Shown piece after piece: positions 12,357 through 62,496 of a stretch of DNA of 64,000 nt. Position 1 is the stretch's first letter; each line of letters begins with the position of its first letter. The notes beneath the pieces are model-generated. The model did no database searches. It saw only the letters and a program-made list of their open reading frames with translations, and had not been told where the DNA came from. Made by a program: the position numbers and the translations under genes. This DNA comes from Salminus brasiliensis (taxonomy: Eukaryota; Chordata; Actinopteri; Characiformes; Bryconidae): positions 32,045,680 to 32,109,679 of the forward strand of contig NC_132896.1 in NCBI RefSeq assembly GCF_030463535.1, given 5' to 3'.

Positions 12357-13367
12357 ATGAGGTGCATCCGCCTATTACCAGCAGCCCTGATCCTCTGCGT
12401 GTGTATGTTAATGCTGACCTCCTGGCACGCTTCTCAACCCGGTAAGTCTCAATGAAGCTGAAGTTTGAGTTCTAGTCTTCTCACATACTGAGCTTCTGAC
12501 GCCTTACTGCAGGACCTCCACAGTGGAGTCCAGTTAAATGATCTGAATGAGACTTTGGCCATCTGAGAACATCAGTTTCATCAACATCTGAGTTTCCTTT
12601 TTACTTCTGAGAAGGAAATACTCATAACTGGTCAAGCTGGTTGACCAGTTAGTCCCTTGACCAGCATGGGGTATGGTTTTGCTTAAGTTTGATGGTTTCG
12701 ATGGTCTACCAGCATGACCAAGCTCGTCAATCAGAATGTCCAATGCAAGACTTTCTCAAACAAGCTGGTTGACCAGCATGACCAAGGTGGTTAACCGGTA
12801 TGGTCAAGTTGTCCTCAATATCAAACTTGAAGTTTATCAAACTTTAGTCAGGAGCTAAACTGGTTAACTAGCTTAACCAGCTTGCTTACCCGCATAGGGT
12901 ATGGTTTTACGGCTTGGTGACCAACTATCCAGCCACATTGAAAATCAAAGACCATCAAAGACCATCTGAAACCAGCTACCAGCAATAATGGTGCCACAAA
13001 GGTGTTTTTGCCATTAATGAACAAGAACCATTGTTGGGTCCATTTTTGAGAACAAGGTGTGTGAAAAATATTTTAAAAGTTTAAGGAAGTGGATGTAGAT
13101 GTTCTTTACCCATGTAACATTTATTCACACTCGCATGTCTTTTATAGAAATGGTTTCTTACATACCCAAAAATGGTTCTTCTGTGGCTTCGCTTAAAGAA
13201 CCCTTTGCAGTACCTTTATTTGTCAGTGTTGGGTGAGTTGGGCCAATCAAATAAAACGGGGACTGTGTTCCCCAGTCTTTCCCTTTAGCTCCATCATCCA
13301 GCATGTGTGAGAACCTTGAACAGTACCTTAGCCTTCAGACCTCAACTTTATGTTTGTCTATCGATCG

Positions 13368-13404
<37 letters not shown>

Positions 13405-16400: not shown

Positions 16401-19400
16401 AATAGCCTTGATTTCAGAAGAAACAATGAATGAGCAGGTGGCCAAATACTTTTGTCCATACAGTGTATGTATGTGGGAAATTTCGTTCAGATGTCGAGTT
16501 ATTGGACAAAGGTCTTGGACTGGCTGATGAGAGCCCAGCAAGATGGAGAGGCCTTGTCAAAGTGCATTACTAGTGATTATTGATAAGAGTTAAGAGAGCG
16601 CTATTAAAGGTCAAGTCATGTAATACAATAAATGGTCAAAAGTATTGGGACACCTGCTCATTCATTGTTTCTCCTCAAATCAAGGCTATTAAAAGAGCTT
16701 ATCCTGCTTTTGTTGGAGATATTGTCTCTACTGTCCAGGGAAGAAGGCTTTCTATCAGATTTTGGAGGAGCATTGCTGTGAGGATTTGATTGCGACAAGA
16801 GCATTAGTGAGGTCAGAATGTTGGATGATGTTCACTACCTCACCTCATCATCCCCAACTCCCCAACTCATCCCAAAAGTACTGAAAGTATCGTTATCCCA
16901 CTTGCCCACATCTGGCATTAGGCACGGTGCCATTATGTTAATGTTTACTCAAAAACTTCAAAGATCGCTGGTTCAAATCCTGGGTTACGCTGCTTGCCAT
17001 CAGCAGCCGGAGTCTGAGAGAGCACAATTGGCCTTGCTCTCTCAGGGGTAGGATGATGGCATTTCCTCCCCACATCGCTTCTGGTGTGTTGTTGGTTAGC
17101 ACAGGCGTCGGATTAGAGATGTGCTAGTCTTCATCCTCTTAGTATTGGGGGGCATCGCTAGTGCTGGGGCGGTCACGTGAACAGGGATTGAGTAATTGGC
17201 CTGCCAAATTGGGTAGAAAATGGTGTAAACATGGTGTAAACATGTTTGATCTGGTTCTGCTGTCTAGAAACCGTAGATCTCGAAAAGGTCTATGAGAGGC
17301 TGGTGAGAGCTGAGCAACGTGGAGAAGCCTTGTCGTACAAACTGCTTCAGGTGCTGGAGAACCTGCAGAACTTGACCTACCCTGCTAATCTCACTTTCAA
17401 CAGCTCTTTGGGTAAGCCTCACTCTCATATCAGTCATACATTTTGCATAACTTTGTCATGCAAACACCACTAACTCTGCCCACACTCTCTTATTTTGCCT
17501 TCCAGCTAAATGGCCAGAAGGTGTTTTATCTGTAAACCCCAACACTCTCCTTTACCTGCCCCACCTGAGACGGCACCAGGACAGCCTGAAGCCCCTTGTT
17601 CATCTGGGCCAGGGACGCAATGGAGGTCAGTCTCTGCCATTCTCTATTTCCTCCAGTGACCATAACATTAGCACCACCTGCTTAACAATGAGCAGGTCCC
17701 TGTTGTCCTGCCACAACAGATCTGACCCGTCAAGGCATGGACTCCACAAGACCTCTGAAGGTGGTATCTGGCATCAAGACAATTGCAGCAGACCCTTTTT
17801 AAGTCCTGTAGGGTGGGAGATGAGGCCTCCATGAGTATCAGTATGATGAGCCTTAGTGTTTTACATGTCACCTGTCAGTGGTGCTAATGTTATGGCTGAT
17901 CAGTGTATAGTCTAAAATGTGGATATACTGTGTCTAGCCTTTAGCAATGTCCAAAAGTTTGCAGACATCCAATGCTTCTGAAATGAAGGGTACTAGCCTG
18001 GAGGTTGTCCTTTCTTTTCTACACTAACAAGCTCTAGTCTTCTGACGAGGCTCAATACTACAGACTGGAACATTGCTGTAAGGATTTGGTTGCACTTGAT
18101 ATGTTATGCCACCACATTTGAACTAGTCTAAATGAACTCAAACTCAAGTCAAACTGGTTACCAGGAGTGAAGAGCATCTGCTCATTGGATCCGTCCAGAC
18201 CCTTCACCTCTCAATGCCTTATACTGTGTCTGTTTGGGTGTGTGTGACTTTACAGTGTCCCTAGTGTTGGGCATTCCCACAGTGCGCAGGCAGAAGCAGA
18301 GTTACCTGGTGAACACAGTGAGCTCTCTGCTCTTTGACCTCACACCTGAGCAGAAGTCGGACATTTCCATCGTCGTCTTTGTTGCCGAGGTAAGCCTGAA
18401 TTCGCGGTCTCAATCTCACCTACTTGCGGAGCTTCTGCAAGTCTGCATTCAAGCCAACGCTAGTTGATTATCATGTAGCGGTTGGCGTGAGACGAGACCT
18501 GTCCGGTACTTGACCTTCTGACCTTTTAGTGTGGGCGCTGTCCCTGCTGTACACATTGACTTGACAGGCAAGGATGCCCCACAGGGCTCTGGTTTAGGGT
18601 TTGTAGCTGATGCTAATTGTGGCAGTGCTGTAGTTGTGAGTGTGAACTGAAGTGGAGGGTTTAAGCGGTCCTCTCTGTGACCGTTCTGCTGCAGGCCTGT
18701 CTCCGATAGGCCTTCCTCGTGACTGTAAACAAAACAAAGCTGTCATAATGCAAGACTTTGGACCGTCCTTCTAATCACGGAGATATCGGCACTATGATAA
18801 CCGAAGTAGGACAATCATCAATCATTAATCCACATCAGATCCACATCACTTATAGACGAGAGGACACCTAGAGGAAGTGCATTCCCAGAAGGAGCATGCA
18901 GTGATTTGGGATCCTACTTCCAGGCAGCTGCTAGGCCGTTACTATGTGGTCACTATGCTGAAGTTGGTTTTGCTAGGTGGTTGCTAAGCTATGCAAGATG
19001 GTTTCTTTGGGTTTGCTTTGCAGTTGATATAGTATTGTAGGTGGCTGCTGTGGTATACCAGATGGTTGCTATTGGGTTGCTAGGTAGTTGTTCTGGTATT
19101 CTAGGGGGTTTCTATGGTATAACAGGTGGCAGCTATGGGTTTGCGAGGTAGCTGCTATTGTATTGTAGGTGGTTGCTCTGGTACACCAGATGTCCGAAGT
19201 GGGGTTGCTATGTAGTTATGTTAATCCAGGTGGGTGCTATGGTGTTCCTAAGTGATTGCTATGCGGTTGCTAGGTTATACCAGATAATTGCTATTGGGTT
19301 GCTGACTAGTTCTTATGGTATTGTAGGTATTGTAGGCTCTGGAATAACAGATGTCTGCTGTAGGTTTGCTATGTAGTTATATTATTCCAGGTGGTTGCTA

Positions 19401-22400
19401 TGGTGTTGCTAAGTGATTGTTAGGTGGTTGCTTTGGTATACTGGTCTTACTTTGGTTACTTTGGTTGCTGTGGTCAAGTATGGGGTTCTTAGGTATTTGT
19501 TATGTTAGGCTGTTGCTATGGTGTTGCTACGTAATTGCTAGGTAGTTGTTGTTGTACATCAGATGGTTGCTATTGAGTTGCTAGATGGTTGTTGTGGTAT
19601 TCCAGATGGCTTCTTTGAGGTTGCCAGGTTATTGCTAAGGTATAGCAGATGGCTGCTATAGTCATTTATAAATAGTTTTTAGATGGTTAGTATGGTGTTG
19701 CTAGGTGGTTGCTGTAATATTCCAGGTGGTTGTTATGATGATACTAAATGGTTCCTAGGTGGTTCTTATGATATTGCTACGTGGTTGCTATGGTGTTGCT
19801 AGGTGTTTGTTAGGCAGTTCTTATAGTACCTCGGGAGGTTGCCTTTTAAAACAATGCAGTTCATTGGCTTTACAGATCTTCGAGAAAGTACATGCCAGCT
19901 TTTAACCTCTCGGAGTGTAATGGCTGGCGGACGGGACTTGGCAACATGCAAGTTTGAAGAAAATGGGGAAAACATCTACAAAAAAGCTCAAGCAGGCATC
20001 AGGCAGAGGAACCACCTTTCAGTTTTTCCGCAGAATTGCACAGGGGAATAAAATAGTCCACATTGCCACCCTGGAGCCGTCTAGTCAGCCCAGTATCTCC
20101 AGGTAGAACTTGCATCTCTCACACGCAAAAAATGGAGAAGCTCTGTTACTGTAAAGACAGTGTGAAGTTTCGGAACAACGCCCATGCACATACGAAAACA
20201 GTTTCTGTTTCAGCCACCAACGGCTTACAACTTACTGAGGGGTGTTTGTTTCTGCAGGGTGGGCTCTCCTGCTGCACTCATCCAGCTGGGGTCGAGAGGC
20301 CTTCGCACACTCGCTGCCTTCAGTCTCCAGTGCTGAATTAACTGTTGCAGTGTTCGTTTGTGTCCAGCTACAGTTAATTGAACAGTGCAGAGGATCATCT
20401 GACGCTGTGATAATTAAACACGGGGGGGTTTTTCTCACTACAGAAGAATAACACGCTAATGTGACCCAGGAGAGTCCTGTTCCTTCAAAGCAGGATGTGT
20501 TACAGCTAAGTGGAGTGGAACTAAAGGAGACAATGACGTTAGCTCATATGAGCAGCTGATAATTACAGCCTCTGGAAGCGAAGTGATTTTCCCATATTTT
20601 CCCATGTAGTTTGTTAACAGTTGGCATAGGTTACTCAGCAACATGGTGCTTATTAGGGCATTCCACCAACAGCACAATGCTTCTACTGACTCATTTAGAA
20701 CTGGTTCAGTTTGGGGATTTTGAACAATGCCTCAGCCACTCGTGTGTTTGTTTATGGACAGGTGCTAACGCATGTTGATGACGTAGCTCCCCCTAGCCTT
20801 GTTCGGTACATGCAAAGCCAGCTACCGTCTCTTTACGAACCACTGCCGAAGCAGAACTGCCGGGCAGCCAAAACACTCAGCCAACAGGGCGCCGGTGCCG
20901 GCCAGCGTCACTTAAGAGCACCATCTACCCAGTTGTACATCTAGTTGTGCTCTCTCTCGGACTCCGGCCACTGATGGCAAAATGGCTTTGCTCAGGATTT
21001 GATCTAGCAACCCCCGGACCATAGTGGTTGTGCATTAGACCGCTGAGCTACTTGGAAACATTTATGTGTGTTTCTAGAATTAAAAAATGTAGTCGTATGA
21101 ATCCTGGCACCATGAACTGAACTTTGACCCGAATCATGAGTTGCCTATGAGGATCCTACAACAAATATGACCTTAAGATATACATTTCTAATGCCTTTAA
21201 AGTCTTATAATATGAATTTATATAAAAATTTTGGGTTTGAATTTAGTGCTTCAGTAGTATTAACATTACTGAACAGAGCTGACTGATATGATCCTTGTTT
21301 CTAAATCGTCTCAAATAAACGACAGAAGCTCAAGTTCTGTGACTAATCGTATGTTTATGGGCATTTACAGGGCGTTTCAGTGCTGATTGAAGCTTGCTTT
21401 GCTTTAAAGCAGCGTTATGTGCAAATTTGTATTTTTTGCTTTTGGGCTCCCGCTACAGTTGGGGAGTGTAACTCACTTTCACCCCCCTACCATAAATACA
21501 AATCTGCTTGAGTACAGACAGCATGGACAGCTGTACACATGCATTTGTTGACAAGCGGAAGGTAAAGAAGCATGTGGACTGAGGCAGTAGAGTAATATTA
21601 CAGGATTTTACACAAATATCAGTTCCACCAAAGTTCAAAGTGGCAACGACAGAGATGCCATTCTCCCTTTTCCAGTCAGTGGAGCATCAACATGATTCTG
21701 AAGCTTCTGATTTCTGGTAAAATTGATAAATAAGTTGATACATAAAGTTGCTTTAAGTTACTCCTACTCTCTCTGAAGCATGCCTTCATATTGCTTATCA
21801 TGGTGCCTCTAGATCTGGCACGTAAAAAGTTGATGAGCTCCCTCCCAAAGTGAAGGTCAGCCATCAATCAAATGCATCAATAAAACAAAAAACATCCTTT
21901 AGAAGATTGTTTAGGGGATCAAAAGAGTTCCTTGTATTTCATTGCTTCCAAGACCCTTTTATTTTTAAGCGCAGTAGTGTCTATGATGCACGGTTTGGTG
22001 AACATGCTCATATCCGTGTGTCCTTACATCACAGCGTTGGCTCGGAAAGTTTCAAAAGCTTGTGTTTTTTCCTTTTTTTTTCTTTGTGCCTTTCCTGTTT
22101 TTGTCCCTCAGTCACAGGCCTTTCTTCTGTTCCCTTCACAGACTGACAGCACGTTTGTGAGCAGTGTGGCAGAAAGCATTCAAAAGAAGTGAGTGATAGT
22201 TTCTCTTTTCTTCTCTTTTTAAACAACATTTTTGATGTTTTATTATTAATTCTATAAAATCTATATTTCTATAAATTATATTATTAAAGTCTATTAGCTC
22301 TATGTGGGTCCTCACTCTGCATGAAAGTTGATAAGAACACAGTAACAATAGGAAACTATAGTTATAATGAAGTTTATATTGAAGTTGTATTTATAGAATG

Positions 22401-23742: not shown

Positions 23743-23807
<65 letters not shown>

Positions 23808-26800: not shown

Positions 26801-29800
26801 ACACAGCCCCAGCCCAACACTCCCTGCGACTTCTCCTTTAGAGTCTCTTTAGAAAGATGCGAAATCTGTGCATTTCTAATATTTAATATAAATCATATTT
26901 TTAATTGTTATAAATTCATTATAAATGTTTTATTTGTAAATTGGCATAGTTGATCATAATTAACATTAACAGGCTTTTTATAAAAACAATAAGCCACTCA
27001 AAATCCACTTCAAATCTAATCAGCCAATTAGTGTTGTAACGTGTCACCCAGAATCAGATGCTCACAGAGTGGAAAGGAAAAAGAGGCTTTAATAAAAATA
27101 TTCATAGATTCGTAATCACAAAACAGGCAAGGATCACTTTCCAGAAGGCAAAAGATAATAAACAGAGGAAGAGAACATATCCGAATGGTCAAGGCAAACT
27201 CGTAGTCACAAAATCAGGCAATCGGTGTAAATCCAAGGCAAAACACACGGGCAGCAAGTCCAAAGGGCAAGACAAAAAAAACAAGGTCGATACAATACAA
27301 AATAACTCAGTAGTTCACCAGAATAGAGATACAGTACTTCACAACCAGCCTGAACTAAAGCCCGGGCTTATATACTAAACTAGAGAGCAGACACAGGTGA
27401 TAGCAATCAGTATTCGGGTGTCTGGAGACGTGGAGGGATGGGAGGAGTCATGTGATCACACCTACGGTCACCTGAGTGATTCTAGGACATGGAATCTAGA
27501 GTCGTGACAGGTGTGCGTATAACATAATCTTGCATGTACGGGTCAGCAGCCTCAGGTGTTATTTACATCCATCATCAGAATGAGGGGAATCGTTGGTGTC
27601 AGAAGTGGTTTTAGTATTTCTTGAACTGCTGAGCTGTTCAGCAGAACGGTCTCTGAAGTTTGCTCCGAAAAGCAGAAGACCACATCAGGTTCCTAGTAGT
27701 GTTCCTAATAAAGCGCCTTGTGAGTGTTTATGTACTTGATGTTTCTGCAGTTTTCCAGATGATGTGAGTTCAGGCCTGGTTGAAGTCATCTCCCCCTCTC
27801 CCTACTACTACCCAAACTTCTCCAACCTGAAGGAAACCTTTGGCGACTCCAGAGAAAGAGTCAAGTAGGAGCTTTTTCTCACCTCCTCGCCGGCATTAGT
27901 GCATACATTGCTGACTATGGCTGTCATTAGTGTTTTTGTAGGTATGTTTGCATACAGGAAATGGCAAATATTTGCTTATATGCTTATCTTTCCAGATGGA
28001 GGACCAAGCAAAACCTAGACTATGGCTTTCTTATGCTGTATGCTCAACAGAAGGGCACGTATTACGTTCAGGTAAGAGTTTACCTTGGGCCAAAGCCTCA
28101 GTGCAGACTTTGAGTGGCTGTTTCCATCATCACTTTTATTAGATTTACAAAGAATGTAAACTAATACAATCCTCACACTTCAGTGGCCTTTACAGTACAT
28201 CCAACAATAAAGGTAGCACAGGTACCGTATTTCTATAGCAAAAAAAAAAGCTGTAGCACATAGAAAGCTCCAGTTAAACGTGATGGAGGAGTGTTTTACC
28301 ATCCCGAACGTGGTCACACAGGTCGTTGATTTGTTAGGTAAGACTTAGGCGACTGTTATGAATGATGATTGGGTAACTGCTATGAATCTAGAGCACTGTT
28401 AGAGCTGGACTGGTTTTACTAGAGGAGATTTTCTAATGGGATGTGTGGGATTGTCTGATTAGTCTGAAGAAGTCAGTGGAGCTTTATGTTTCAGTTCTGT
28501 AGTTGGGGAAGACAGTGGACATTGTGGGGAATTGAAGTGGGATCCCAGTCTTTCAAGGGGTCGCTCTGTGTTTGTGTGTGTTCCAGCTGGAGGACGATAT
28601 TGTGGCAAAATCAGGATACCATGAGTCTATAACAAAGTACGTCCAAGAGGTGATCACACAGCAGTGGCTCTACCTGGAGTTTTCTCAGCTGGGCTTTATT
28701 GGTAAGTCTGTGTTTTTCAATATTCACTTATCCGAACTTTTCGAACTCCTCTTCTCCTTTCTCCTCTCTTCTCTCCTCTCATCTTTTCTTACCTTCTCTT
28801 CTCCTCATTTCTCTCCTCTTCTATTCTCTTCTCTTCTCCTCATTTTTGTCCTCTTATCTTCTCTTCTCCTCTCTACTCTACTTTCTTCTCCTCATTTCTC
28901 CTCTCTTCTCTTCTCTTCTCCTCTCTTTTCTCCTCTACTCTCTCCTCTCTTCTCTTCTCCTCTCTTTTCTCCTCTACTCTCTCCTCTCTTCTCGTCTCCT
29001 CTCTTCTCTCCTCTCCTCTTTTCATTTCTTCTCTCCTCTTTCTCCTCTTCTCTTCTCCTCATTTCTTTCCTCTTCTCTTCTCTTCTCTTCTCTTCTCTTC
29101 TCTTCTCTTCTCTTCTACTTTCTTCTCTCTCCTCTTTTCTTATCTTCTCTTCTCCTCATTTCTTTCCTCTTCTCTTCTCTTCTCTTCTCTTCTCTTCTCT
29201 CCTCCTTTCGTCTCTTTCTCCTCTCCTCTTCTCTTCTCCTCATTTCTATCCTCTCCTCTTCTTTCTTCTCTCCTTTCTTCTCTCCTCACCTTTTCTCTTC
29301 TCCTCTGTTCTCTTCTCCTCTCAATACACATAAGAAATAGAGAACCTGAGCCCAACTCAAGTTTAATCTTCCTGAATGTGGCCCAAAAGTCTAATATTTG
29401 GTCTCGGCCCTCAGGGCTTGGGTTGGGTAGCAAAACTATTCTTTCCCCAGTCCTCTCTTCTCCTCCCTTCTCCTCTCCTCTCCTCTCCTCTTCTCTCCTC
29501 TTCTCTCCTCACTCCTGTCCTCCCTTCATTCTCCCTTCTCTTCATTTCCCTTACCTTCTCCTCTCATCAACACTCTCATTCTCGTCCAATCACGGCTCTT
29601 AAGACTGCATCTGCAAGCAGGACAGAGTTCTCAGTCTCATCAGAGCGTCTCTCTCTCTTAAGAGAGTCTCTTAAGAGTCTCTCTTACTACGAACTAGCCG
29701 CTGGATGAGGTTTGTCTCAGTGGTACATTGGGGTTCGAGTGATCACTGGGACAGAAAGTCTTTGTCTCTGTGGTTCTCAGGTGTCCAATAGCGTTCAGGT

Positions 29801-32800
29801 TATAGGCGAAGTGGCGTCAGTGGTCACAATAGCGCACAGGTCCATTCCAACCCAGTTTTCACAAAGCAGGGGGGTAAAAGAAGTAAACCGACACCAGCGA
29901 AGGAATCTTCTGTTATCTGCTCTTAAAGAAGATCCCACACACAAACAGGTCTCTCTCACACACACACACTTTAATTCTCACACTCACATCAGAAGCACAC
30001 AGTGTTCTGGTTTCCTGTCATGAGAAATAAATAGAAAGTAGGAACACTCACCCACCCTCACACACACACACACACTCCCTGGGCTTTTCTAAGAAAAGTC
30101 ATGACTGCCTTATGGTTTCTCTGTCCACCCAAACTGCTTTTTTTTTTTACAGGTAAGCTTTTCCGAGCTTCAGATCTGCCCATGATTGTGGAGTTCATTC
30201 TGATGTTCTACAAAGACAAGCCCATTGACTGGCTGCTGGATCACCTCCTCTGGGTCAAAGTGTGTAACCCAGAGAAGGACAGTGTAAGATGATAGATCTT
30301 TCATTACAAAAGGTTCTAGGTCTGGTTGTAATGCTAAACAGTACCCACAAGAGGTTCTTTGTTCCAGTGGCAGTGAGACAGCTGGACAGAACACAAATTA
30401 TTCTTATTGGATGTCCTTTTCTTATAATTGGTTCTGCGTATTAACCCTCTGGAGTTTAAGGACATTTGCTCAAGGCACCTGAGCTCTCTCTGTAATGAGA
30501 CCCCATGTGACCTAGAGCACTGTGTGAGGAGATACTCTAACCCTAACCTGAAAAATGAAAGTCAGGTTTAGGAAATTCTTCATATTTCCTTTTAAAAACA
30601 TCCCTTTACTCATATGGACAAATTGTTCTGGTGCCTGAAACAGGTTTACCAGAGTCTTAGCTTCACAAACTATACAAAATGAATATAAACAGCGAGAGGC
30701 AGAAGACTCTGCAGTAGTCTGTCCAGTTTCTGAGTGTCCACTCAGTTTCTCAGAAAGATGGACATAGATACATGCCTGAATTCAGCAATTACAGATGAGA
30801 GGCAGATGATGGACACCAGTTAGACTGGGTGAGAGAAAGAGATGAGAGCCTCGTATCTCCAGGTGTGAGTGACATACAACAACAACGATGAATTTTCAAC
30901 AGGATACAGCGTAATATTTACCCACATGTTGTTTCACGTGGGATTAATACAGCCTGAGGTTAGTTTCACGGCTAAAGAGGGTAAAGGCAGCAGATTCTTT
31001 ACTGATGCAGGAGAGCGATGTCCGTAAAAATGACTGACATGGCGCAGCATTCGGACGGGACTAAAATCACTGAGAAACTCAGGTAATAATTACATCACCC
31101 CACGTCCCCACGTAGAACCAGTCCCGTCCCAATACAGCTTTAGAAAGTCAGACTCAGTGAATGCTCCCAGGTTTTAGAAAGTCAGACTCAGTGAATGCTC
31201 CCAGGTTTTAGAAAGTCAGACTCAGTGAATGCTCCCAGGCTTTAGAAAGTCAGACTCAGTGAATGCTCCCAGGTTTTATAAAGTCAGACTCAGTGAATGC
31301 TCCCAGGCTTTATAAAGTCAGACTCAGTGAATGCTCCCAGGCTTTAGAAAGTCAGACTCAGTGAATGCTCCCAGGTTTTAGAAAGTCAGACTCAGTGAAT
31401 GCTCCCAGGTTTTAGAAAGTCAGACTCAGTGAATGCTCCCAGGTTTTAGAAAGTCAGACTCAGTGAATGCTCCCAGGTTTTAGAAAGTCAGACTCAGTGA
31501 ATGCTCCCAGGTTTTAGAAAGTCAGACTCAGTGAATGCTCCCAGGCTTTAGAAAGTCAGACTCAGTGAATGCTCCCAGGCTTTAGAAAGTCAGACTATGG
31601 GGTGAATGGTCGTGGTGGATTAGAGAATGTTGCCTTATTCGTTTTTCCTTGTCCACAGAAACACTGCGGTGCTGAGAAGGCCAAACTCAGGCGCACTTTC
31701 AAGCCCTCGCTGTTTCAGCATGTGGGTCTGCACTCCTCCCTGCCTGGAAAAATACAGAACCTGAAAGTTAGTCATGATTTTCGCTTCTTACTCTCACATT
31801 TCTGAAATTTCCTAGTGATTCATAGTCATTTCTCCAACTGTTCAGCAATCAGCAAGTTTTACATTACCTAGAAATTGAATCATGTTTTGTTGTGCTGGGT
31901 GTGTGCTTGTCTGTGTGTGTGTGTCTGTGTGTGTGTGTGTGTGTGTGTGTTGATTAGGATAAAGACTTTGGAAAACAGGTTCTGTTCAAGGCCCACTCCA
32001 ACCCTGATGCTGTTCTGAGCAGCAGTTTGAAGGATTATCAGGGTCACTCCTTGGAGAAGGCTTACCTGGGACAAGACTTCTTCTGGGGTTTCACTCCTAC
32101 CAAAGGGGATTACATCCTCATCACCTTCACAACACCTCAGATCATTAAAGGGTGAGAAAGTAACGCCTTGTTTTTGCACAAACACATGTATAGATTTTTC
32201 TTTATACTCCAGAAGTAATTAGTCGGGCCAAGCCCTGTTCAGGAATCTGAAAAAACTGAAAATATATGCTACATTCATGCTACATTGTCCCTATAGCAGA
32301 GAGTTATAAGTGCCTTGCTCAAGTGACCGACAGTGACAACTTAACAGGCCTGGGTATCGAGCCCACAACCCTCTGATCAATGAGCCAGAAACATAGGTCT
32401 TCTCTTCACATATAGCAGCTAAAAAGAAAAAAAGCCAGACTCTGGAACAGAGACAGTATGAGCTTAGATGATTTGGGTATTGAACCTACAACCTTGTGAT
32501 CAATAACTCAGCACTGTAAACCACTCTAAGACAAAAGTCTTTACTTCACATATACCAGTTAAAAAGGCCAGGCTCAGCCATGCTATAGAACCCCTGAAAA
32601 AGAGACAGTAGCTTAGTGGACCCGAATATCGACCCCACAACCCTGTGATCAATAACTTAGCACTGTAAACTGCTCAGCCAGCCTTAAAAAGAAGTCTTTA
32701 CTTCACATATACCAGCTAAAAAGGCCAGGCTCAGCCATGCTATGGTACCCCTGGAACAGAGACACACTGATTAATAAACCAGCACTTGTGATTCATCATG

Positions 32801-36848: not shown

Positions 36849-36895
<47 letters not shown>

Positions 36896-37075
36896 AGGTA
36901 CATCTTTCGGACTGGAAGCATCGAGACGAATGGAGACAAGTTTTACAACACCACCGTGGAGGTGCTGCCTAGTGACGTAGGTGCCCTAGGAGTCATTTTA
37001 ATGCTCAGATTTCCAGGGTGACACTGAGAGTGATAAGGCTGACACACTGGATCCTGTGACACATCTCACCTCATG

Positions 37076-37113
<38 letters not shown>

Positions 37114-37202
37114 CCATCCACCCACTAATTATGACCTTTACCTTAACTACAGCTGCAACCTTTACTCCCCATCTTACTAGAGAGAGAGAGAGAGAGAGAG
37201 AG

Positions 37203-37257
<55 letters not shown>

Positions 37258-38896
37258 AAATGCACACTTCCTCATTCCCCGTCACTGAGCGAGGAGGACA
37301 CTCCTCCGCCTGGTAGCTTCCACCATGCATCCCTGCTTATGGCTGCAAGTAAACCCTCACAAGAGGTTCCTCCACTGTTTCAAATGGGAGAGCCTCCAAA
37401 AGTTCCTGAAGGATCTCTAACAGTGTAGTTGGGTTCTCTTGGGTCGGACCAAGCACTGAAATGACACACTGCAGAGAAAAAGGTGAGGCAGGACGTTGGT
37501 GGAGTGAGTGGACAGGGTTGTGAGAAATTACACCTGGATTAACTCTTCTTAATTTCCTTGATTTTAGAAAAAGAAATCATTAATGAGCAGGTGTCCCAAT
37601 ACTTTTGTCAACACAGTGTAGCAACAGCATGACAGGGGATCTTTTCAATCGGCTTTATAAAAAAAAATTAAGGGGGGGGGGGGGCTTTGAGGGGGACTAA
37701 GGCGCTGTCACTGTGAACAGAGGATCACTGGGTCGAATCCCGGTCATGCTGCTAGCCATCGGCAGCCGAGGCCCAGAGAGAGGGTGAGTAGATGGCCGTC
37801 GCTGCTGTCTGCAGGCTGGTGCATTGGAGCCGGGTATGCGGCGCTTCCCTCCAGGCGCGTTGGTTGGATGCCTGGGGATGCTGCAACGGCAGCAGTCGGA
37901 AAAATGAGCAGCTTGAACGTGCACGCGTAGTGTGTTGTGTCAGGGGGCATCATGTATATTGAGGGTGGGGGTACATATAGGTACATATAGGTTGGGTAAT
38001 ATAAAAAAAGTGTGAATGCAGTGTGAATGTGTGCAAAATTAGACCATTTAAAATGTCAAATTAAATTTTAAAATTCTATTTATGGTATTTTATATATTCT
38101 TATATATGGTATTTTTAAAAACTTTAGCCTCAAACATGACGGAGCTCGAACACAGAAGCTTTAATAGAGAAAAAACTTCACCTACTTTTTAGGAGATAAA
38201 TGGACGATCAGTCATTGGGCTGGATTAAGCTAAGAGCTAGGAGAGGAGCAGCTGTGTGTGTGTGTGTGTGTGTGTGTGTATAAGAGAATGAAAGGTACTT
38301 AGTTATATGATTTAATCCATATTTCATCATAAATAATAATAATAATAAAGTGTAATCTACCCTCTGAGCTCAACAGTAGTGACGCTGTGTTTACATCGCT
38401 AAATAAAAGCCCTAATACATCACTAGTCTCTGTAAAGAGAGAGAGCTAGGTAAGGAAGTTAAAGCCGAACTTGATAAGATTAGTCTGATTCATTTGTATT
38501 TATTTATGTATTTTTAGTTATTATCACATGATACACTTTCCATTATCACAGGGGAGTGATTTCAGGCCTGCAGAACGGGATCCAGCATGTTTTGCTGGTA
38601 TCAGGAGAGTATTTAACCCACCATGCTGTGACGCTTTCAAACACACTTGCTTTCCCGTAGCTGCTGACACACACCGGTTACCCTGCGTGTGACGTAACAG
38701 CCACAGAACGTGTGAAGAAGGGTTTTGACACTTAGTTGTTTCACACTGTGTGTTTCAGGCCTCTGTGAGCGAGCGGGTGGAGAAAGGACTTCTGCCATGC
38801 TGTAGACCTTCGTCCGATGGCTTTGTGGTGATAGGTACTCACACGTCATTTACATTTCACCTGTTCATTTACATAAACACAAGAAGGATTTGAATG

Positions 38897-38939
<43 letters not shown>

Positions 38940-39002
38940 GAGATACTAGTGAAAAATAGAGAGCGTGAAGAACTGGTGAAATTGGAGGTAGAATTGTGTA
39001 AG

Positions 39003-39056
<54 letters not shown>

Positions 39057-42000
39057 TGCCAGCGGATTAACTGTCGTTTGAGGAAGGCTGCAGTGCGGCT
39101 ATTTATTTGGAAACCGAAAATGAATACTACACTGGACTGGATTCTCATCTGCACTCTCAGAGCCCCCGTGTTCAGTAGTAATTTAAGGATTCCTGTAATC
39201 ACCAACATATTTATACATAAATACAGAAATGACACAAATTTGCTTCGGTAATTTCAATAATTAACATTTTTTCAGAAGTAGATTTTAACATGTCTACGTT
39301 TTAACCAAGACAGGGTCCCATAAAAACCCACCTTGTAGATAATTGCTGAACCCCACAGTTCCTGCACATTCACACAGACTCTCAAACTTTACAAAATATA
39401 CTATATTCTAGCTTCAGCTGCGTTCAGCCTCTTCACTGGCTTCCTGTAGCTTGAAAACCTTGACTCTGGCCTACAAAGCCAAGACTGGACCATCCAGCCC
39501 CTCCGTACTTGATAGCGATGGTCAAAAGCCAATCCTCACCAAGAGCCCTTCGAGCTTCAAGTGCGGCTCGGCTCGACCCGCCATCCCTCAAAATCCACTG
39601 AAGACGAGCGTCCAGGCTTTTTACTGTCCTGCTCCAAAGTGGTGGAACGAACTTCCCCTGGGTGTCCGAACAGCAGAGTCCAACGCTCGCTGTCTTCAAA
39701 CCCAGACTGAAGACCTTCCTCTTCTGAGAGGACTTGGTCAGCAGAGTGTGTAGAGTACTGTGGTCTCCGTACTGACCTCTGTATTCTGTACTCTGTATTC
39801 AAGATTAGAGGGATCTTTTGGATTCTAGTCTGTACAAACTATATAAGGGTATTTTCTGAGTAAACAGAATCTGAGACACTTTGACAAGAACCAAACTGTG
39901 AGGTTCTGGACGACTGGGTCAGAACATCTCCAAAACGTCAGGCAGCTCTTGTGGGGAGTTCGAGGTGTGCAGTGGTCAGTACCTACCAAAAGTGCTCCAA
40001 GAAAGGAACCACCAGTGAATGAACAACAGCTTCACGAGCAGCTAAGGGCTCACTGATGTGATCCATGGAAACCTTAATGGATCTGCTGCTAACGTTAGTC
40101 TTGGTGTCAGATACCCCAGGACCCTTTCAGGGGTGTTGTGGGGTTCACTGTATTAGGTTAGGTTGTGCTAATGTTATGGCTGATATGATAAAAGTGCAAG
40201 TATTGCAGGTATACAATGTAAGAGCATTTCATTAAACGTGTGTGTGTGTGTGTGTGTGTGTTTTTGTTTTGCACAGGAACCTTTGTGAACGGACTAGCAG
40301 AGGGAGAGGTAGATGGAGCGCTCCGGGAGATGGATGCCTTACGTCTCCTCGTTCATTCAGACTCAGATGTCTGGGTCCTTCTGAGCGAGGTGAGGCTCAG
40401 TAATACTGCCAGCTGGTTTATATGGGAATCTGTAGACATTATACAGTATGTAGTCAAAAAAGAAACATTACCTGTCCAAATGTTTGTGGACACCCCATCT
40501 AATGAATGCATCCAGCTACTTTAAGTTGGTCCCACACAGCTTGTCTCGTCCCTGTAGTGAAGTATTGATAATGCAATAGAACTCTCAGCACCATGCTGCC
40601 TAATAATGCCAGGCGTGGGCTAGATAGAGGGGTATAAAGCCCCCCAGCATTGAGCTGTGGAGCAGTGGAAGAACTGCGTTCTCTGGAATGATGGACTGTG
40701 GTGCTCCATTTAATACTTTTAGGTTGGGGATGATGAGGTGGGGTGGTGATGATCATTATTCAACATCCTGACCTCACTAACACTCTCGTTACTAAATGCA
40801 ATCAAATCCTCACAGCAATGCTCCTCCAAAATCTAGTAGAAAGCCTTCTTCCTTGGACAGTAGAGACAGTTACTCCAACAAAAGCAGGATAGAGTCTTTT
40901 TAATAGCCTTAAAATTTGAATGAACAAGTGTCCCAATACTTTTGTCCATATAATGTACCAGCTTAGAAAGCCAAAGTCGACCATGCTGCCGTGCCCCATG
41001 AGCAGAGAGGGTTAAATGCCTTGCTCAAGATCTCAAGAACAGAAGCAGCTTAGTGGACCTGGGTATCGAACCCACCACCTGTATAGACATATGAGCAAAA
41101 GCACCTCACCTGTAAGTTTTCTGATATATCTTTGGAACCTCAACATTATTCTGGGCTATCAACCAAGCCATAAACATGTCAGGCCTCTGTAATCTCCCCA
41201 ACTCCAAACCCCTTTGCCTTTGTAAAGCATCTGCAGTCTGGGACATCTGTTGAGACTCGCAGCTCATTTAAATAGCCTTGCATTTTTATCTAAGGCAAAC
41301 AGTCACTCAGTCATAGCGGGCAGTTATGGGATGCACTAAAACATGTGACAGACTCTCAGAGGAGCAGAGCTGGTTACACAGGTGGGCGATTTCACAGGAA
41401 AATCAACAGCTCGCTTGAAGCTGCAGTTCCAGTTTAGGCTCCAAGTTTACTGGAGGTGTGGTAATAGCGTTGAGGACCGGCCTGCATGGTACTGCAGTTC
41501 CAGACTGGTGCGTTGAAATACTCGTATGAGCCAAAACATTCTTGTCGCTGTTGGTAAAAAAGGTAAAGGTGCCTGTATTTGTCACTTCACTACATACAGA
41601 GAAACGTGTCCTCTGCTTTCGACCTATCTGTGATAGTGAACTAGGGCCAGTGATCACACACACACCCAGAGCGGTGGGCAGCCAACTCCAGCACCCAGGG
41701 AGCAGAGGAGGTGAAGGGCCCTGCCCCTGGTATATTACGTGGCCTAGTCCTGGTATCTGGCACCAAGGTGTTACAGCAGATCCTACAAGTTCTAGATCCT
41801 TCAGACCTAGCGCATCCACATGCATGTAATGGAAACGAAAACAGGGGCAGGTGACCTTCTGAAATTACTCCCGAGTCCAGGTTTGACTCGCACCCATTGT
41901 TGGTGCACATAGGTTAGAACTACTCAACTCCAGACACAGCATCAGTCCCAGTATCATCGACCTCATATTTCTGACCTTCATGAAGGAAACTCAACATTAC

Positions 42001-43993
42001 TATCTTCATCAAGCTGGTCATTTTACTGTGGCTCATGGGTCTACAGCTCTGGAAAAATGAAGACCACATTTTTTTCTTAACTTTGCATCTCTACGTCTAT
42101 GGCAACCATTAAATTCCAGGCATTTCATCTAACAGAGCTGAGGTAGCTGAATCTGCAGAGTATAAATGGCATAAAGTCCCAACAGCAATGTGAAAGACTA
42201 GTGGAGAGCCGGCTGAGACATGAGAGCTGTGATTGACCGTCAGGGTTATTGCACCATAGTGATTTCTGAATGCTCTCAAAGTTCAGATATTAGTCCTGTG
42301 TTGGTTAAATTGAATAATAATGTCATTGCATTTTAATTATTATAATAATTCTTCTTTGCATTGTTTGAGCAGTTGTTTTTGAGCAGCTGTCATTTCTGTA
42401 AATCAATAAAATAAATGATAAAATAAATTCATAAATAAATGCTCAAAATAGTAATATTCTTATTTGGAATTTAGGAGAAATGTTGTCCATGGTTAATGAA
42501 ATACACCGCAAATATACCTTAAACTTATTACCTATAAATAGTAAAACCAGAGAAACTAATAATGTAGGGTGGTCCTTTATTTTTTCCGGAGCTGTGTAGT
42601 GTGGGCTGTGTGATGTCAGATAGCCTCGTTTGCTATTTTGCAGTTTGGGAATGACTTTATCTTCATTAAAAGGACGATAAGGTTTTTCTAGCATGACAAA
42701 CCTGTGCAAAGCCTTGGTGTGTCATACAGGTGCATCTGGATTGTTTGGATTCTCTAGACGTTTTGCAACACTGGTTTTCCAGTATTATTCTAGTCACTAA
42801 AGAAGCCTAGCAAATAACGTCACTGCCCAGAAACATTTACACCACTTACATAATTTCCTGGTTCTTTTCTCATTAGTCAGACGTTTACATACACTCTAAC
42901 TGGTCTTTATTTGGGCTAAATCAGTTACAAAATAAGTCTTTAATAGAAAAAAAACAAGAACTTGGTCACAAATTTTAATTTTGGGGGTTTTCTGAACTCA
43001 ACACACGATCAGAATTATACACACAGGTCAAAAATATACATACACCTACATCGATTATTCATTCAGAGGTGCAAGGAGCTCAGAGCAGATCTGAGAAAGA
43101 CAATCGTAGATTTACACCAATCATGAACATCTCTTGTAGCCGTTTCTAATTAACTTCTCTGCCAAGTTCTGGAAGAAGACCCAAGCTGTCACCCTCAGCT
43201 GAGAGGTTATGGGTTCGGATAGTCAGGAACACCCCAAGAACCTCCTAGGCCCAAGCTGTTGTCCAAGAAAGAAGCTCCTGCTCTGAAATCTTGACACCTT
43301 CGAGCTTGGCTGAAGTTTGCAGATGAAAAAAAAAGCTTTCTAGAGAAACGTTATAAGTTGTTTGGCCACAGTGGGTATGCCTGGAGGTGTGAAGAGTAAA
43401 GATTCAACCACAAGACCACTGTAAACCACTGCTGAGCAGAGGTGAATAGAGGAGAATCATGCTCTGGGGGGTTGCTGCCAGTGGAACTGGTTGGCCTACA
43501 TTGCACAGTGAATGGAATGAGGATGGTGGAGGACTACCTCACAATTCTTCAGCATAACCTTCAGCATAATCAGCAGCTAGAGAGTTAAAACTTGGACACA
43601 ACTGGCTGTTCAAGGTGCAAAATGACCCCAAATATAAACCAAATACATATACTGTGCTCAAAGTTGGGTCTATTCGAGGAAACCAACTAATTCAACCGAA
43701 TTCAACCAATTCTGCCAAGTAGTGAAGGTCAAATATCCAACCAGAAGCTTGAAGCTAAGCTGTTGAAGGTACCACGTGCTAAGAGACATTTACCCAAATA
43801 TTAAATGTGCTGTATGTCTAATTCTGGCCTTGTGTTGACCTCAGAAACCCCTTCCCCCAATCAAATTTAAACAGATGTACAGTGGAAACATCTGCGTCTC
43901 ATCTGCGTGGTTGTCCAGCAGTGTGGTCACCAGAGATAAGGTTTGATTAAGAGTCTCGTCTTCTCTTTCTGACAGATCTTCATAAAAGTTTGA
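12357..43993 (+). CDS. mgat4d: GT54-family N-acetylglucosaminyltransferase-IV-like protein (MGAT4 family, probable mgat4d)
   Basis: Fifteen coding exons joined in phase: 12357-12441, 17268-17411, 17506-17625, 18256-18389, 22142-22188, 27751-27864, 27996-28071, 28587-28701, 30153-30283, 31659-31766, 31958-32151, 36898-36976, 38759-38834, 40277-40389, 43976-43993. They give 517 aa with no stop or frameshift. Residues 7-22 are a signal anchor, so this is a type II Golgi membrane protein. A short coiled-coil-like stem follows (residues 32-64), with sequons at N63, N69 and N73. The GT54 core runs from about residue 117 to 358. It includes W-R-T-K-Q-N-L-D-Y, the acidic L-E-D-D (EDD at 242-244), E-F-S-Q-L-G-F-I-G and S-L-F-Q-H-V-G blocks typical of GnT-IV. 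A C-terminal lectin-like region spans residues 359-517. Family members add beta-1,4-GlcNAc to the alpha-1,3 arm of N-glycans. Mammalian MGAT4D is recalled as an inhibitory, shorter relative. The name rests on linkage to scoc, mgst2 and setd7; an mgat4b-like label is the alternative. D-Y-G replaces the usual D-Y-C of MGAT4A/B. Confidence 0.85.
12590..12990 (+). repeat. Dispersed 'ctggt(t/c)gaccagcatg' repeat in intron 1
   Basis: Many near-copies of 'gaccagcatg' and 'aagctggttgaccag' are scattered over about 400 bp, and again at 13435-13485. The words are nearly self-complementary (CTGGT...ACCAG), so the region is rich in short inverted repeats. It is the same family as the block at about 3880-3985. 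Confidence 0.65.
13368..13402 (+). repeat. (TTA)n microsatellite
   Basis: A run of about eleven TTA units in intron 1 of the mgat4-family gene. Confidence 0.9.
13477..14139 (+). repeat. Longer copy of the segment duplicated at 11.44-11.71 kb
   Basis: The two ends (13477-13638 and 14046-14139) match the upstream copy closely. The middle of about 410 bp, absent upstream, contains mariner-MITE sequence ('ctccatccagtacttttggg', 'cctcactaacactc') and unrecognised sequence. Confidence 0.7.
14370..15610 (+). mobile_element. Two related, degenerate copies of a dispersed fish repeat
   Basis: It starts with 'caatcaatcaatcaa..tttatttatacag', followed by 'gtggcaaggataaactt' and 'accaagactcaaaaggggaa', a pattern common in fish genomes. 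Blocks at 14790-14905 and 15200-15320 are near-identical ('atctgccactattaatatca', 'tatattcagtt'). Both are followed by 'gatcagaggaggat' and 'gtgagtctt', with the second copy keeping a longer 'ttggttcctcccaaggtttc' tail. This looks like a tandem or nested insertion of one element family. Its class is uncertain. Confidence 0.6.
16041..16468 (+). mobile_element. Mariner-like MITE, full-length copy
   Basis: It runs from 'tacactatatgtccaaatgt' (followed by 'tgtggacacccc') to 'aatacttttgtccatacagt', with related termini in inverted orientation. The interior has the family blocks 'gttgccgacacagatgtgca', 'gtagagaagaagtact' and 'ctccaaaatctagt'. No transposase frame is present. It lies in intron 1 of the mgat4-family gene, immediately before the decayed exon-2 copy. 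Confidence 0.75.
16491..16568 (+). pseudogene. Decayed duplicate of mgat4-family exon 2
   Basis: This matches exon 2 (17268-17411) over its first half. From the shared word AAGGTCT to GCCTTGTC, 51 bp align without a gap and differ at about 10 positions. In the matching frame it reads [18 protein letters not shown] against [17 protein letters not shown] in the real exon. An acceptor-like 'ttcgttcag' ends at 16490. However, entry in the phase-1 frame left by exon 1 would be out of register, the frame stops at TGA soon after, and no good donor follows. It is most likely a dead tandem exon copy stranded between two MITEs. Confidence 0.65.
16632..16935 (-). mobile_element. Mariner-like MITE, partial inverted copy
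   Basis: It begins 'ggtcaaaagtattgggacacc', the complement of the family's right end, and continues through 'tttggaggagcattgctgtg' to 'catctggcattaggcac'. It is truncated at its far end by a SINE-like sequence. Confidence 0.7.
16955..17225 (+). mobile_element. tRNA-derived SINE-like element
   Basis: An RNA polymerase III B-box-like GGTTCAAATCC (about 16971-16981) is followed by 'gccatcagcagccggagtc' and 'tggggcggtcacgtgaacag'. The same arrangement is seen at 37685-37960 and, inverted, at 20935-21056. It ends about 40 bp before exon 2 of the mgat4-family gene. Confidence 0.65.
17650..17912. mobile_element. MITE-like repeat with 'ccataacattagcaccac' ends
   Basis: The left end reads 'ccataacattagcaccacct'. 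The right end is its inverted counterpart, 'gtggtgctaatgttatggc'. This gives terminal inverted repeats of about 19 bp around a 260-bp non-coding body in intron 3. The interior shares sequence with the repeats at 11.8 and 39.9 kb. Confidence 0.75.
18890..19840 (+). repeat. Degenerate minisatellite of 'ggttgctatggt' words in intron 4
   Basis: About 0.95 kb is built from diverged direct repeats such as 'aggtggttgctatggtgttg' and 'ttgctaggt'. Units of roughly 20-40 bp are irregularly arranged. It is an old tandem array with no open coding pattern. Confidence 0.85.
20935..21056 (-). mobile_element. tRNA-derived SINE fragment, minus strand
   Basis: The reverse strand shows an A-box-like TAGCTCAGCGG, then a degenerate B box and 'tggccggagtccgagagag'. 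This is the same family as 16955-17225 and 37685-37960. Confidence 0.65.
22420..22575 (+). mobile_element. Plus-strand copy of the 'cattttggagcg' dispersed repeat
   Basis: This shares 'aagtcattttggagcgttta', 'ttggtccattcat' and 'agattcacattatgtcgaaa' with 62497-62600, and in inverted form with 1490-1632. It lies 230 bp after exon 5 of the mgat4-family gene. A partial sister lies at 23325-23425. Confidence 0.6.
23154..23232 (-). mobile_element. Fish SINE tail fragment, minus strand
   Basis: The reverse strand reads 'taagtcgctctggataagag' then 'cgtctgctaaatg', the conserved 3' tail of fish V-SINE/L2-related elements. Only the tail is present. Confidence 0.75.
23747..23803. repeat. (AT)n microsatellite
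   Basis: About 57 bp of pure AT dinucleotide in intron 5 of the mgat4-family gene. Confidence 0.9.
24541..25039 (+). mobile_element. Mariner-like MITE, full-length copy
   Basis: The left end is 'acaatgtgtccaaatac..ggacacccc' and the right end 'caatacttttgtccattttg'. The interior has the family block 'ggtataaagccccccagcat'. It lies in intron 5 of the mgat4-family gene. Confidence 0.75.
26337..26549 (+). mobile_element. Fish tRNA-derived SINE, near full length
   Basis: The head 'gtggttggtgtggcacaaca' with a promoter-like region is followed by 'gggcaagactcctaacact'. The conserved tail runs through 'gtaagtcgctctggataaga' and 'gcgtctgctaaat'. It is closely related to 50427-50669. Confidence 0.8.
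27035..27509 (-). mobile_element. Solo LTR of a Ty3/gypsy-like retrotransposon
   Basis: The 475-bp unit begins TGTAACGTGT and ends GTGACA on the plus strand. On the minus strand it begins TGTCACGACTC and contains a TATA-like 'gtatataagcccgggc' (27361-27376), as expected of an LTR promoter. Flanks are AGTGT (27030-27034) and GGTGT (27510-27514), a 5-bp target duplication with one mismatch. No internal retroelement genes are adjacent, so this is a recombined solo LTR, in intron 5. The one open frame across it is not a gag or pol gene. Confidence 0.65.
28745..29330 (+). repeat. 0.6-kb polypyrimidine (CTCTTCTC)n tract directly after exon 8
   Basis: Beginning 44 nt after the exon 8 donor, nearly every base is C or T for about 585 bp, in imperfect 'ctcttctc' and 'ctcctcattt' units. 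Long pyrimidine-rich open frames on + and purine-rich frames on - are by-products of the repeat. Homopurine-homopyrimidine mirror repeats of this kind can form triplex DNA. A shorter sister tract lies at 29450-29570. Confidence 0.9.
29450..29570 (+). repeat. Second polypyrimidine tract in intron 8
   Basis: About 120 bp of 'ctcctctcct'-type repeat, separated from the larger tract by 120 bp of ordinary sequence. Confidence 0.85.
31136..31594 (+). repeat. 34-bp minisatellite, about 13 copies, in intron 9
   Basis: The unit runs 'ttttagaaagtcagactcag' then 'tgaatgctcccagg', repeated head to tail with very few differences (mainly gtttta/gcttta and taga/tata). The array ends 64 bp before exon 10. 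High homogeneity implies recent expansion. Confidence 0.95.
31911..31951 (+). repeat. (GT)n microsatellite at the exon 11 acceptor
   Basis: An interrupted GT run ends just 6 nt before the exon 11 boundary at 31958, so it replaces the usual polypyrimidine tract of that acceptor. Confidence 0.85.
32280..32760 (+). repeat. Three to four diverged tandem repeats, SINE/L2-like, in intron 11
   Basis: Blocks with 'gggtat(t/c)ga(a/g)ccaca(a)cc(t)', 'gtgatcaat' and 'cttcacatatacca' recur at about 32340, 32470, 32625 and 32700. The 'gccttgctcaag' word also appears at 41020 and 45252. It is an old SINE-derived segment that later multiplied locally. Confidence 0.6.
33770..35770 (+). repeat. 2-kb minisatellite with ~40-bp unit and higher-order structure, intron 11
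   Basis: About fifty 37-40-bp units of the form 'caatagtacaggcccaaa', 'nccttgactgtaggagtgtgtc' run head to tail. Variant units recur in a fixed order: the segment at 34220-34481 is repeated almost exactly at 34482-34743 (period 262 bp). A related multi-unit block recurs near 34840-35100 and 35160-35430. Three outlying units lie at 36010-36135. The repetitive proteins read from it are artefacts. Confidence 0.95.
36424..36815 (+). mobile_element. Mariner-like MITE, right end lost
   Basis: It starts 'tacactatgtgtccaaaagt' with the family interior through 'gccttgatttcagaagaagc', then breaks off before the terminal repeat. It lies in intron 11, 80 bp before the CT tract and exon 12. Confidence 0.7.
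36851..36891 (+). repeat. (CT)n microsatellite serving as the exon 12 polypyrimidine tract
   Basis: About twenty CT units lie immediately before 'tgtgcag' and exon 12 (36898), so the microsatellite forms the splice acceptor's pyrimidine tract. Confidence 0.9.
37081..37254 (+). repeat. Compound (GT)n-(GA)n-(GT)n microsatellite
   Basis: GT run 37081-37110, GA run about 37179-37204 and GT run 37205-37254, all in intron 12 about 100-280 bp after exon 12. Confidence 0.9.
37685..37960 (+). mobile_element. tRNA-derived SINE-like element
   Basis: A B-box-like GGGTCGAATCCC is followed by 'gccatcggcagccgaggccc' and 'tgcattggagccgggta'. It is the same family as 16955-17225. A mariner-MITE right-end fragment (about 37545-37620) and a poly-G run precede it. 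Confidence 0.6.
38898..39054. repeat. Paired (AC)n and (GT)n microsatellites forming an inverted repeat
   Basis: An AC run (38898-38936) and a GT run (39005-39054) are separated by about 70 bp in intron 13. They are complementary, so the transcript or single strand could fold into a roughly 40-bp hairpin. Confidence 0.85.
39418..39752 (+). mobile_element. 3' end of a degenerate LINE (L2/CR1-like reverse transcriptase C-terminus)
   Basis: The plus-strand translation carries the family's terminal pattern: L-x-W-L-P near the start, P-S near 39497, then [13 protein letters not shown] and S-N-A-R-C near 39620-39700. It ends near a TAG at 39751. This corresponds to the conserved 'AP.LWN.LP' region of non-LTR polymerases. 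The frame is broken upstream and only the last part survives, in intron 13. Confidence 0.7.
39895..40185 (+). mobile_element. Dispersed fish repeat (copy)
   Basis: This contains 'gggtcagaacatctccaaaa', 'gtggtcagtacctacc' and 'gctcactgatgtgatccatg', and ends in 'gtgctaatgttatggctgat'. Its relatives are at 11770-12010, 50810-50985 and 17650-17912. Confidence 0.6.
40471..40958 (+). mobile_element. Mariner-like MITE, full-length copy
   Basis: The ends are 'cctgtccaaatgtttgtgga' and 'aatacttttgtccatataat'. The interior family blocks are intact. It starts about 80 bp after exon 14 of the mgat4-family gene. Confidence 0.75.
41530..41800 (+). repeat. Dispersed fish repeat in intron 14
   Basis: It carries 'gtcacttcactacatacaga', 'gccagtgatcacacac', 'gcggtgggcagccaactcca' and 'gggagcagaggagg', a layout I recognise as a common teleost interspersed repeat. 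Overlapping open frames on both strands are not supported as genes. Confidence 0.5.
42041..42599. mobile_element. MITE with ACAGCTC(T/C)GGAAAAA terminal inverted repeats
   Basis: The left end is CTACAGCTCTGGAAAAATGA. The reverse complement of the right end reads CTACACAGCTCCGGAAAAAA, and both continue to a GACCAC-like block. The 559-bp body is AT-rich and non-coding. It lies in intron 14. Confidence 0.8.
42876..43860. mobile_element. Degenerate Tc1-like transposon
   Basis: It opens with 'gtcagacgtttacatacact', a Tc1-type terminal repeat. The long inverted-repeat sequence has 'cttggtcacaaattttaatt'. A counterpart, 'ttctggccttgtgttgacct', is near 43820. Between them is a transposase-like region with many stops (for example the 'atcatgctctggggggttgc' and 'gaccccaaatata' blocks). 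The coding region is dead and the right terminal repeat is truncated. Confidence 0.8.
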
Positions 43994-59836: not shown

Positions 59837-59911
<75 letters not shown>

Positions 59912-62490: not shown

Positions 62491-62496
62491 GTGGGC

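What the first reader, a model, noticed from the sequence alone, without database searches (positions are those of the whole stretch)
12357..43993. Full-length fish MGAT4D-type gene that keeps the GnT-IV acidic motif
Seen: 15 in-phase exons give 517 aa with signal anchor, GT54 core, an EDD motif at 242-244 and a complete C-terminal domain. Known (from memory): mammalian MGAT4D (GnT1IP) is shorter, testis-biased and inhibits GnT-I rather than acting as an enzyme. Inference: if this is the orthologue, as linkage to scoc/mgst2/setd7 suggests, the ancestral protein was a full-length, possibly active GnT-IV and lost length and activity in mammals. The D-Y-G in place of D-Y-C next to the motif is a divergent site to test.
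Basis: partly seen in the sequence, partly recalled or inferred. Interest (0 to 1): 0.7.

Follow-up and report, generated by a model that had tools for sequence, protein, structure and literature searches.

The report
Full-length fish mgat4d sugar-transferase gene
This is an intact fish gene for a Golgi enzyme that probably adds a branch to the sugar chains of proteins; its mammalian counterpart lost its tail and its activity, but that story was published in 2025, so the locus is an ordinary further example.

Summary
A search of this fish's genome found five GT54 loci: one mgat4a, one mgat4b, two mgat4c and this one. The inference is already in print: Morigo et al. 2025 (PMC12616123) report full-length fish MGAT4D, an active medaka enzyme, and loss of the 3' exons in mammals. 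Two emphases fall away: mammalian MGAT4D also keeps EDD, and the residue after L-D-Y varies (G here; S, C, A, A in this fish's other four). Verdict: real, well read, already known; low interest. Expression and activity of this protein were not tested.

The parts
12357..12441 (+). mgat4d exon 1: start codon, cytoplasmic tail and signal anchor, judged by eye (aa 1-29)
17268..17411 (+). exon 2: stem (aa 29-77)
17506..17625 (+). exon 3 (aa 77-117)
18256..18389 (+). exon 4, GIPTVRR motif (aa 117-161)
22142..22188 (+). exon 5, 47 nt (aa 162-177)
   Evidence: 47-nt counterpart in own mgat4a and mgat4b
27751..27864 (+). exon 6, start of FGD..WR motif (aa 177-215)
27996..28071 (+). exon 7, LDYGF (aa 215-240)
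28587..28701 (+). exon 8, EDD motif aa 242-244 and start of GFIGKLF (aa 241-279)
30153..30283 (+). exon 9, PIDWLL with D304, position of the putative catalytic D (aa 279-322)
31659..31766 (+). exon 10, HVGLH motif (aa 323-358)
31958..32151 (+). exon 11, start of lectin domain, Y385 and W401 (aa 359-423)
36898..36976 (+). exon 12, lectin domain, D436 (aa 423-449)
38759..38834 (+). exon 13, lectin domain (aa 450-475)
40277..40389 (+). exon 14, lectin domain, W507 (aa 475-512)
43976..43993 (+). exon 15, last 5 aa (513-517) and stop
47263..47595 (-). scoc (two coding exons seen), near MGAT4D in human and pig lists
51182..54433 (-). mgst2-like gene (MAPEG family), exons seen in pieces
55375..62508 (+). 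setd7, 5' part; continues beyond the window

Best explanation
The gene is this fish's mgat4d (the only one found), a member of the ABD subgroup of GT54. It encodes a type II Golgi membrane protein with a GT-A catalytic domain that most likely transfers GlcNAc from UDP-GlcNAc, held by the EDD motif and a metal ion, in beta1,4 linkage to the alpha1,3-mannose arm of N-glycans (GnT-IV activity). A C-terminal GlcNAc-binding lectin domain probably helps it on glycoproteins. Shown here: gene structure, domains, motif sites, the genome inventory and scoc linkage. Inferred from the medaka enzyme in print: activity and specificity of this protein. Not shown: Golgi location, expression and activity.
For: Intact 15-exon gene; PMC12616123 gives 15 or 16 coding exons in its text and 14 or 15 in a figure legend for MGAT4A, B and non-mammalian D. 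Catalytic and lectin domains. The nine motif sites printed in PMC12616123 can be placed: FGDX6WR, EDD, GFIGKLF, HVGXH and lectin motifs 1 and 2 fit as printed; GXPX2KR has R for K (GIPTVRR); lectin motif 3 is ETNGD for EHPGD; motif 4 has D for P and was placed by eye, since the pattern found nothing (the printed W-X3-E spacing does not fit recalled human MGAT4B either). All 4 GlcNAc-contact residues are kept (Y385, W401, D436, W507), and the putative catalytic D (D304). The genome search gave one mgat4a (84.5% to recalled human A over aa 88-449), one mgat4b (85.9% to recalled human B), two mgat4c, and this gene at 60.2-62.7% to the four A and B rows. With recalled human rows, 4A+4B is a clade without the window protein, 96/93, and the A clade is rejected (p 0.036); sister of own mgat4b alone is rejected (p 0.0225), of own mgat4a alone (p 1.9e-5) and of recalled human B alone (p 0.009). 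scoc is adjacent; human 4q31.1 lists SCOC, CLGN, MGAT4D and pig chromosome 8 ELMOD2, MGAT4D, CLGN, SCOC. Medaka MGAT4D is active.
Against: With the five proteins of this fish alone the tree is unresolved and weakly joins the window protein with mgat4b (63/63); neither alternative is rejected (p 0.19 and 0.30). Placement in the whole 4B clade is not rejected (p 0.0606), the 4B pair itself has only 77/84, and the program warned that a long branch (own mgat4c2) meets the A/B/D group. No other MGAT4D sequence was in any tree, and the human rows are from memory. ELMOD2, the other neighbour in pig, is not near: none of 10 ELMO_CED12 matches lies near C19:32 Mb. mgat4b lies 4.7 Mb away on the same contig. 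Lectin motifs 3 and 4 deviate; 48 of 230 columns identical in the four A and B rows are changed, and 3 of 79 columns identical in the other seven GT54 proteins, among them R335T.
Confidence: 0.9

Rival explanations
1. A lineage-specific or teleost-specific duplicate of mgat4b (the old name of fish mgat4d was MGAT4B-like) that has diverged quickly.
For: Nearest row is mgat4b (62.7% core identity against 61.3% to mgat4a); the own-fish tree weakly joins them (63/63); same contig; B-clade placement not rejected, p 0.0606.
Against: Own mgat4b is 85.9% identical to recalled human B, while the window protein is about equally far from all four A and B rows; sister of own mgat4b alone is rejected (p 0.0225), as a duplicate younger than the fish-mammal split should be; scoc is the MGAT4D-side neighbour in mammals.
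Confidence: 0.06
2. An mgat4d that has become catalytically weak or regulatory in this lineage, acting on GnT-I as the mammalian protein does rather than as a GnT-IV.
For: Altered lectin motifs 3 and 4 and changes at 3 of 79 otherwise identical columns, including R335T; the MGAT4D subfamily evolves fast; mouse MGAT4D has EDD yet is inactive, so EDD does not prove activity.
Against: Catalytic motif sites, the putative catalytic D and the 4 lectin contact residues are kept; medaka MGAT4D is active.
Confidence: 0.1
3. A pseudogene or mis-assembled composite.
For: No transcript evidence; long introns, two of them with minisatellites.
Against: 14 of 14 introns GT-AG, no stop in 517 codons; exons of the same phases can be fitted in the paralogues.
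Confidence: 0.02

Closest known systems
Fish MGAT4D (medaka, Oryzias latipes), formerly MGAT4B-like; GT54 ABD subgroup, PMC12616123
   Same: Full-length multi-exon gene with catalytic, linker and lectin (CBM94) domains
   Different: Medaka activity was measured; here it is inferred. Sequence identity to medaka could not be measured
Mammalian MGAT4D (GnT1IP)
   Same: Orthologous by the neighbouring scoc; both keep EDD (PMC9296478)
   Different: Mammalian gene has 10 coding exons, no lectin domain and no GnT-IV activity; the mouse protein inhibits MGAT1
MGAT4A and MGAT4B (GnT-IVa, GnT-IVb)
   Same: Same domains and motif sites, fitting exon phases; 60-63% identity over aa 88-449
   Different: Separate loci in this genome (C8 and C19:27.3 Mb); slower evolving
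MGAT4C (two loci in this genome, C13 and C14)
   Same: GT54 domain and EDD
   Different: 35.1% and 37.0% identity to this fish's two copies; their catalytic and lectin regions read through in one open frame; GnT-VI-like subgroup in print

Membership tests
GT54 / MGAT4 family | MGAT4 conserved region (PF04666) | tested here: met
   E 1.6e-120, aa 88-362
GT54 ABD subgroup | Multi-exon gene of about 15 coding exons with conserved boundaries | tested here: met
   15 exons; exons with the same phases fitted in own mgat4a (12 of 12 tried) and mgat4b (13 of 13 tried), the phases being imposed
GT54 ABD subgroup | Catalytic motifs 1-5 of PMC12616123 | tested here: met
   GIPTVRR (R for K), [26 protein letters not shown]
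GT54 ABD subgroup | Lectin motifs 1-4 (LX2YX1-2H, YXGXDFFW, EHPGD, DXPXWX3EX3K) | tested here: inconclusive
   Motifs 1 and 2 fit; motif 3 is ETNGD; motif 4 did not match by pattern and by eye has D for P; the four contact residues are kept
MGAT4D subfamily | Falls outside MGAT4A and MGAT4B and with other MGAT4D in a tree | tested here: inconclusive
   Outside 4A+4B at 96/93 with recalled human rows, B clade p 0.0606; unresolved with own proteins only; no other MGAT4D was available
MGAT4D subfamily | Conserved synteny of the MGAT4D locus | tested here: met
   scoc adjacent as in human and pig lists; but elmod2 not near, and clgn could not be tested
   20 PF04666 matches in 5 loci, the other four being mgat4a, mgat4b and two mgat4c; the tool calls such counts lower bounds
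Active GnT-IV enzyme | Forms beta1,4-GlcNAc branch on biantennary N-glycan | not testable with these tools
   In print for medaka MGAT4D

The most novel reading that the evidence does not exclude
In this fish lineage mgat4d is an active enzyme whose altered lectin rim (ETNGD for EHPGD, D for P in motif 4) and R335T give it a glycoprotein or acceptor preference unlike GnT-IVa and GnT-IVb, that is, a third specialised GnT-IV that mammals lost.
Probability: 0.12. Interest if true: 0.35.

Novelty: already known. Interest (0 to 1): 0.13.

Why it matters
It adds an intact mgat4d with its local context from a fish genome of 103 contigs and agrees with the published account that mammals lost a third GnT-IV. 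It changes nothing in that account.

Tried and rejected
Relatives in prokaryotic assemblies (contaminant contigs): genome-contig scan, 59 stretches matched a pattern, 0 confirmed. Linkage to elmod2: 10 matches, none near; recalled ELMOD2 also had no significant match in the window or in the 30 kb on either side. D-Y-G as a functional site: rejected, the position is G, S, C, A, A in the five GT54 genes of this fish. EDD as the difference from mammals: rejected by PMC9296478. Loss of the lectin domain as sole cause of mammalian inactivity: rejected in print. Passage searches of PMC4572887 and PMC7005853 for DXD, EDD and fish homologues gave nothing of use. Pfam on the upstream lipocalin-like exons: no match. 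No structure was predicted. Expression data, and vertebrate MGAT4D sequences, were not reached. The methods and supplements of PMC12616123 were not read (one methods passage was seen).

Full report
Observation. One search gives 15 exons from 12357 to 43993, 14 of 14 introns GT-AG, consistent phases, 517 codons without a stop, EDD at 242-244 and L-D-Y-G-F with G at 225. The signal anchor was judged by eye.

Domains. Pfam-A finds the MGAT4 conserved region at aa 88-362 (E 1.6e-120) and the MGAT4 C-terminal domain at aa 377-512 (E 6e-46). Among solved structures there are three matches, all within aa 363-516: the MGAT4A lectin domain (7XTL, E 5.7e-37; 7VMT, E 2.7e-33) and a lectin domain deposited as N-acetylglucosaminyltransferase IV (7XTM, E 1.8e-22; from silkworm according to PMC12616123).

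The genome. PF04666 gives 20 matches in five loci: one match each on C13 and C14, six on C8 (20.56 Mb), six on C19 at 27.3 Mb and six in the window gene (the tool warns that counts of large families are lower bounds). Comparison with the recalled human proteins names them: C8 is mgat4a, C19:27.3 Mb is mgat4b, C13 and C14 are mgat4c copies.

Relationship. Over window aa 88-449, the window protein is 61.3% identical to this fish's mgat4a, 62.7% to its mgat4b, 60.2% and 61.6% to recalled human A and B, and 35.1% and 37.0% to its mgat4c copies; own mgat4a against recalled human A is 84.5% and own mgat4b against recalled human B 85.9%. In the maximum-likelihood tree with the recalled human rows, 4A and 4B together exclude the window protein with 96/93 support; membership of the A clade is rejected (p 0.036), that of the B clade is not (p 0.0606), the 4B pair has 77/84, and the program warned of long branches meeting (own mgat4c2 with the A/B/D group). 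Sister of own mgat4b alone has p 0.0225, of own mgat4a alone p 1.9e-5, of recalled human B alone p 0.009. Without the recalled rows the five-protein tree does not resolve the question and weakly prefers mgat4b (63/63; the alternatives have p 0.19 and 0.30). This fits the published statements that fish MGAT4D, previously known as MGAT4B-like, remained relatively close to MGAT4B and that MGAT4D emerged before MGAT4A and MGAT4B. No other MGAT4D sequence was at hand, so the tree alone does not prove membership; the inventory and scoc carry the case.

Neighbourhood. scoc lies 3.3 kb downstream on the other strand, followed by an mgst2-like gene and setd7, which continues past the window. The human locus 4q31.1 lists SCOC, CLGN and MGAT4D (PMC11765965, table passage), and a pig list runs INPP4B, IL15, RNF150, TBC1D9, ELMOD2, MGAT4D, CLGN, SCOC (PMC10741191, table passage; a second pig list in PMC12937405, table passage). 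That SETD7 and MGST2 lie nearby in human is my recollection only. elmod2 was not found near in this fish; clgn could not be asked (service busy).

Function. PMC12616123 (Morigo et al., iScience, October 2025; outline, introduction and the whole results-and-discussion section read; one passage search; methods and supplements not read) answers the finding. Fish MGAT4D is full length with a lectin domain; mammalian MGAT4D has 10 coding exons and lost the lectin domain; medaka MGAT4D expressed in MGAT4A/B double-knockout HEK293 cells formed a product with the retention time and mass of that of mouse MGAT4A; and mouse MGAT4D joined to a lectin domain stayed inactive, so loss of the lectin domain is not the only cause. 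The window protein has the five catalytic motif sites, with R for K in the first, and the four lectin motif sites, with changes in the third (ETNGD for EHPGD) and fourth (D for P; placed by eye, the pattern found nothing). The four GlcNAc-contact residues, Y394, W410, D445 and W513 of mouse MGAT4A, correspond to Y385, W401, D436 and W507, and the putative catalytic D313 to D304, using the shift of 9 between the mouse isoform and the recalled human numbering that holds for the four lectin residues. Activity is therefore likely, and inferred.

What does not hold. Keeping EDD does not set this protein apart from mammalian MGAT4D: PMC9296478 states that all four members share it (passages). The D-Y-G is not telling: the position is S in this fish's mgat4a, C in its mgat4b and A in both mgat4c copies. 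Better sites to test are R335T, one of three changes among 79 columns identical in the seven other proteins aligned (the others are E149Q and T380S; three of the seven are recalled), and lectin motifs 3 and 4.

Verdict. A real, intact, correctly described mgat4d. The claim it was meant to open is already published with enzyme assays. Searches of the paper library: MGAT4D (34 papers hold it, 32 listed), SCOC / MGAT4D / CLGN (12 hold two or more) and MGAT4B-like / GnT1IP / mgat4d / fish (6 hold three or more). Interest is low.

Noticed in passing
window 2160-5444 and 7588-10342, + strand: Two tandem copies of a small secreted lipocalin-like gene (signal peptides followed by CEDLTKP); probes from one copy hit the other at 55-69% identity, and no further copy was hit in the 30 kb on either side of the window. 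No Pfam match; the lipocalin reading is from memory of fish orosomucoid-like proteins.
   Followed up: partly
G000 C19:27.3 Mb and C19:32.06 Mb: mgat4b and mgat4d lie on the same contig 4.7 Mb apart, whereas in human they are on chromosomes 5 and 4 (PMC12616123).
   Followed up: no
window 33881-35762 and 31139-31596: Minisatellites inside mgat4d introns: a 40-bp unit array with higher-order periods in intron 11 and a 34-bp unit of 13.5 copies, 98% matches, in intron 9.
   Followed up: no
G000 C14:499001-507000: The second mgat4c copy is much more diverged than the first (59.4% identity to the other copy; end branch 0.93 against 0.11).
   Followed up: no
G000 C8:20562288-20562371: This fish's mgat4a has L-D-Y-S-F, so the residue after L-D-Y differs among all three ABD genes of one genome.
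   Followed up: yes
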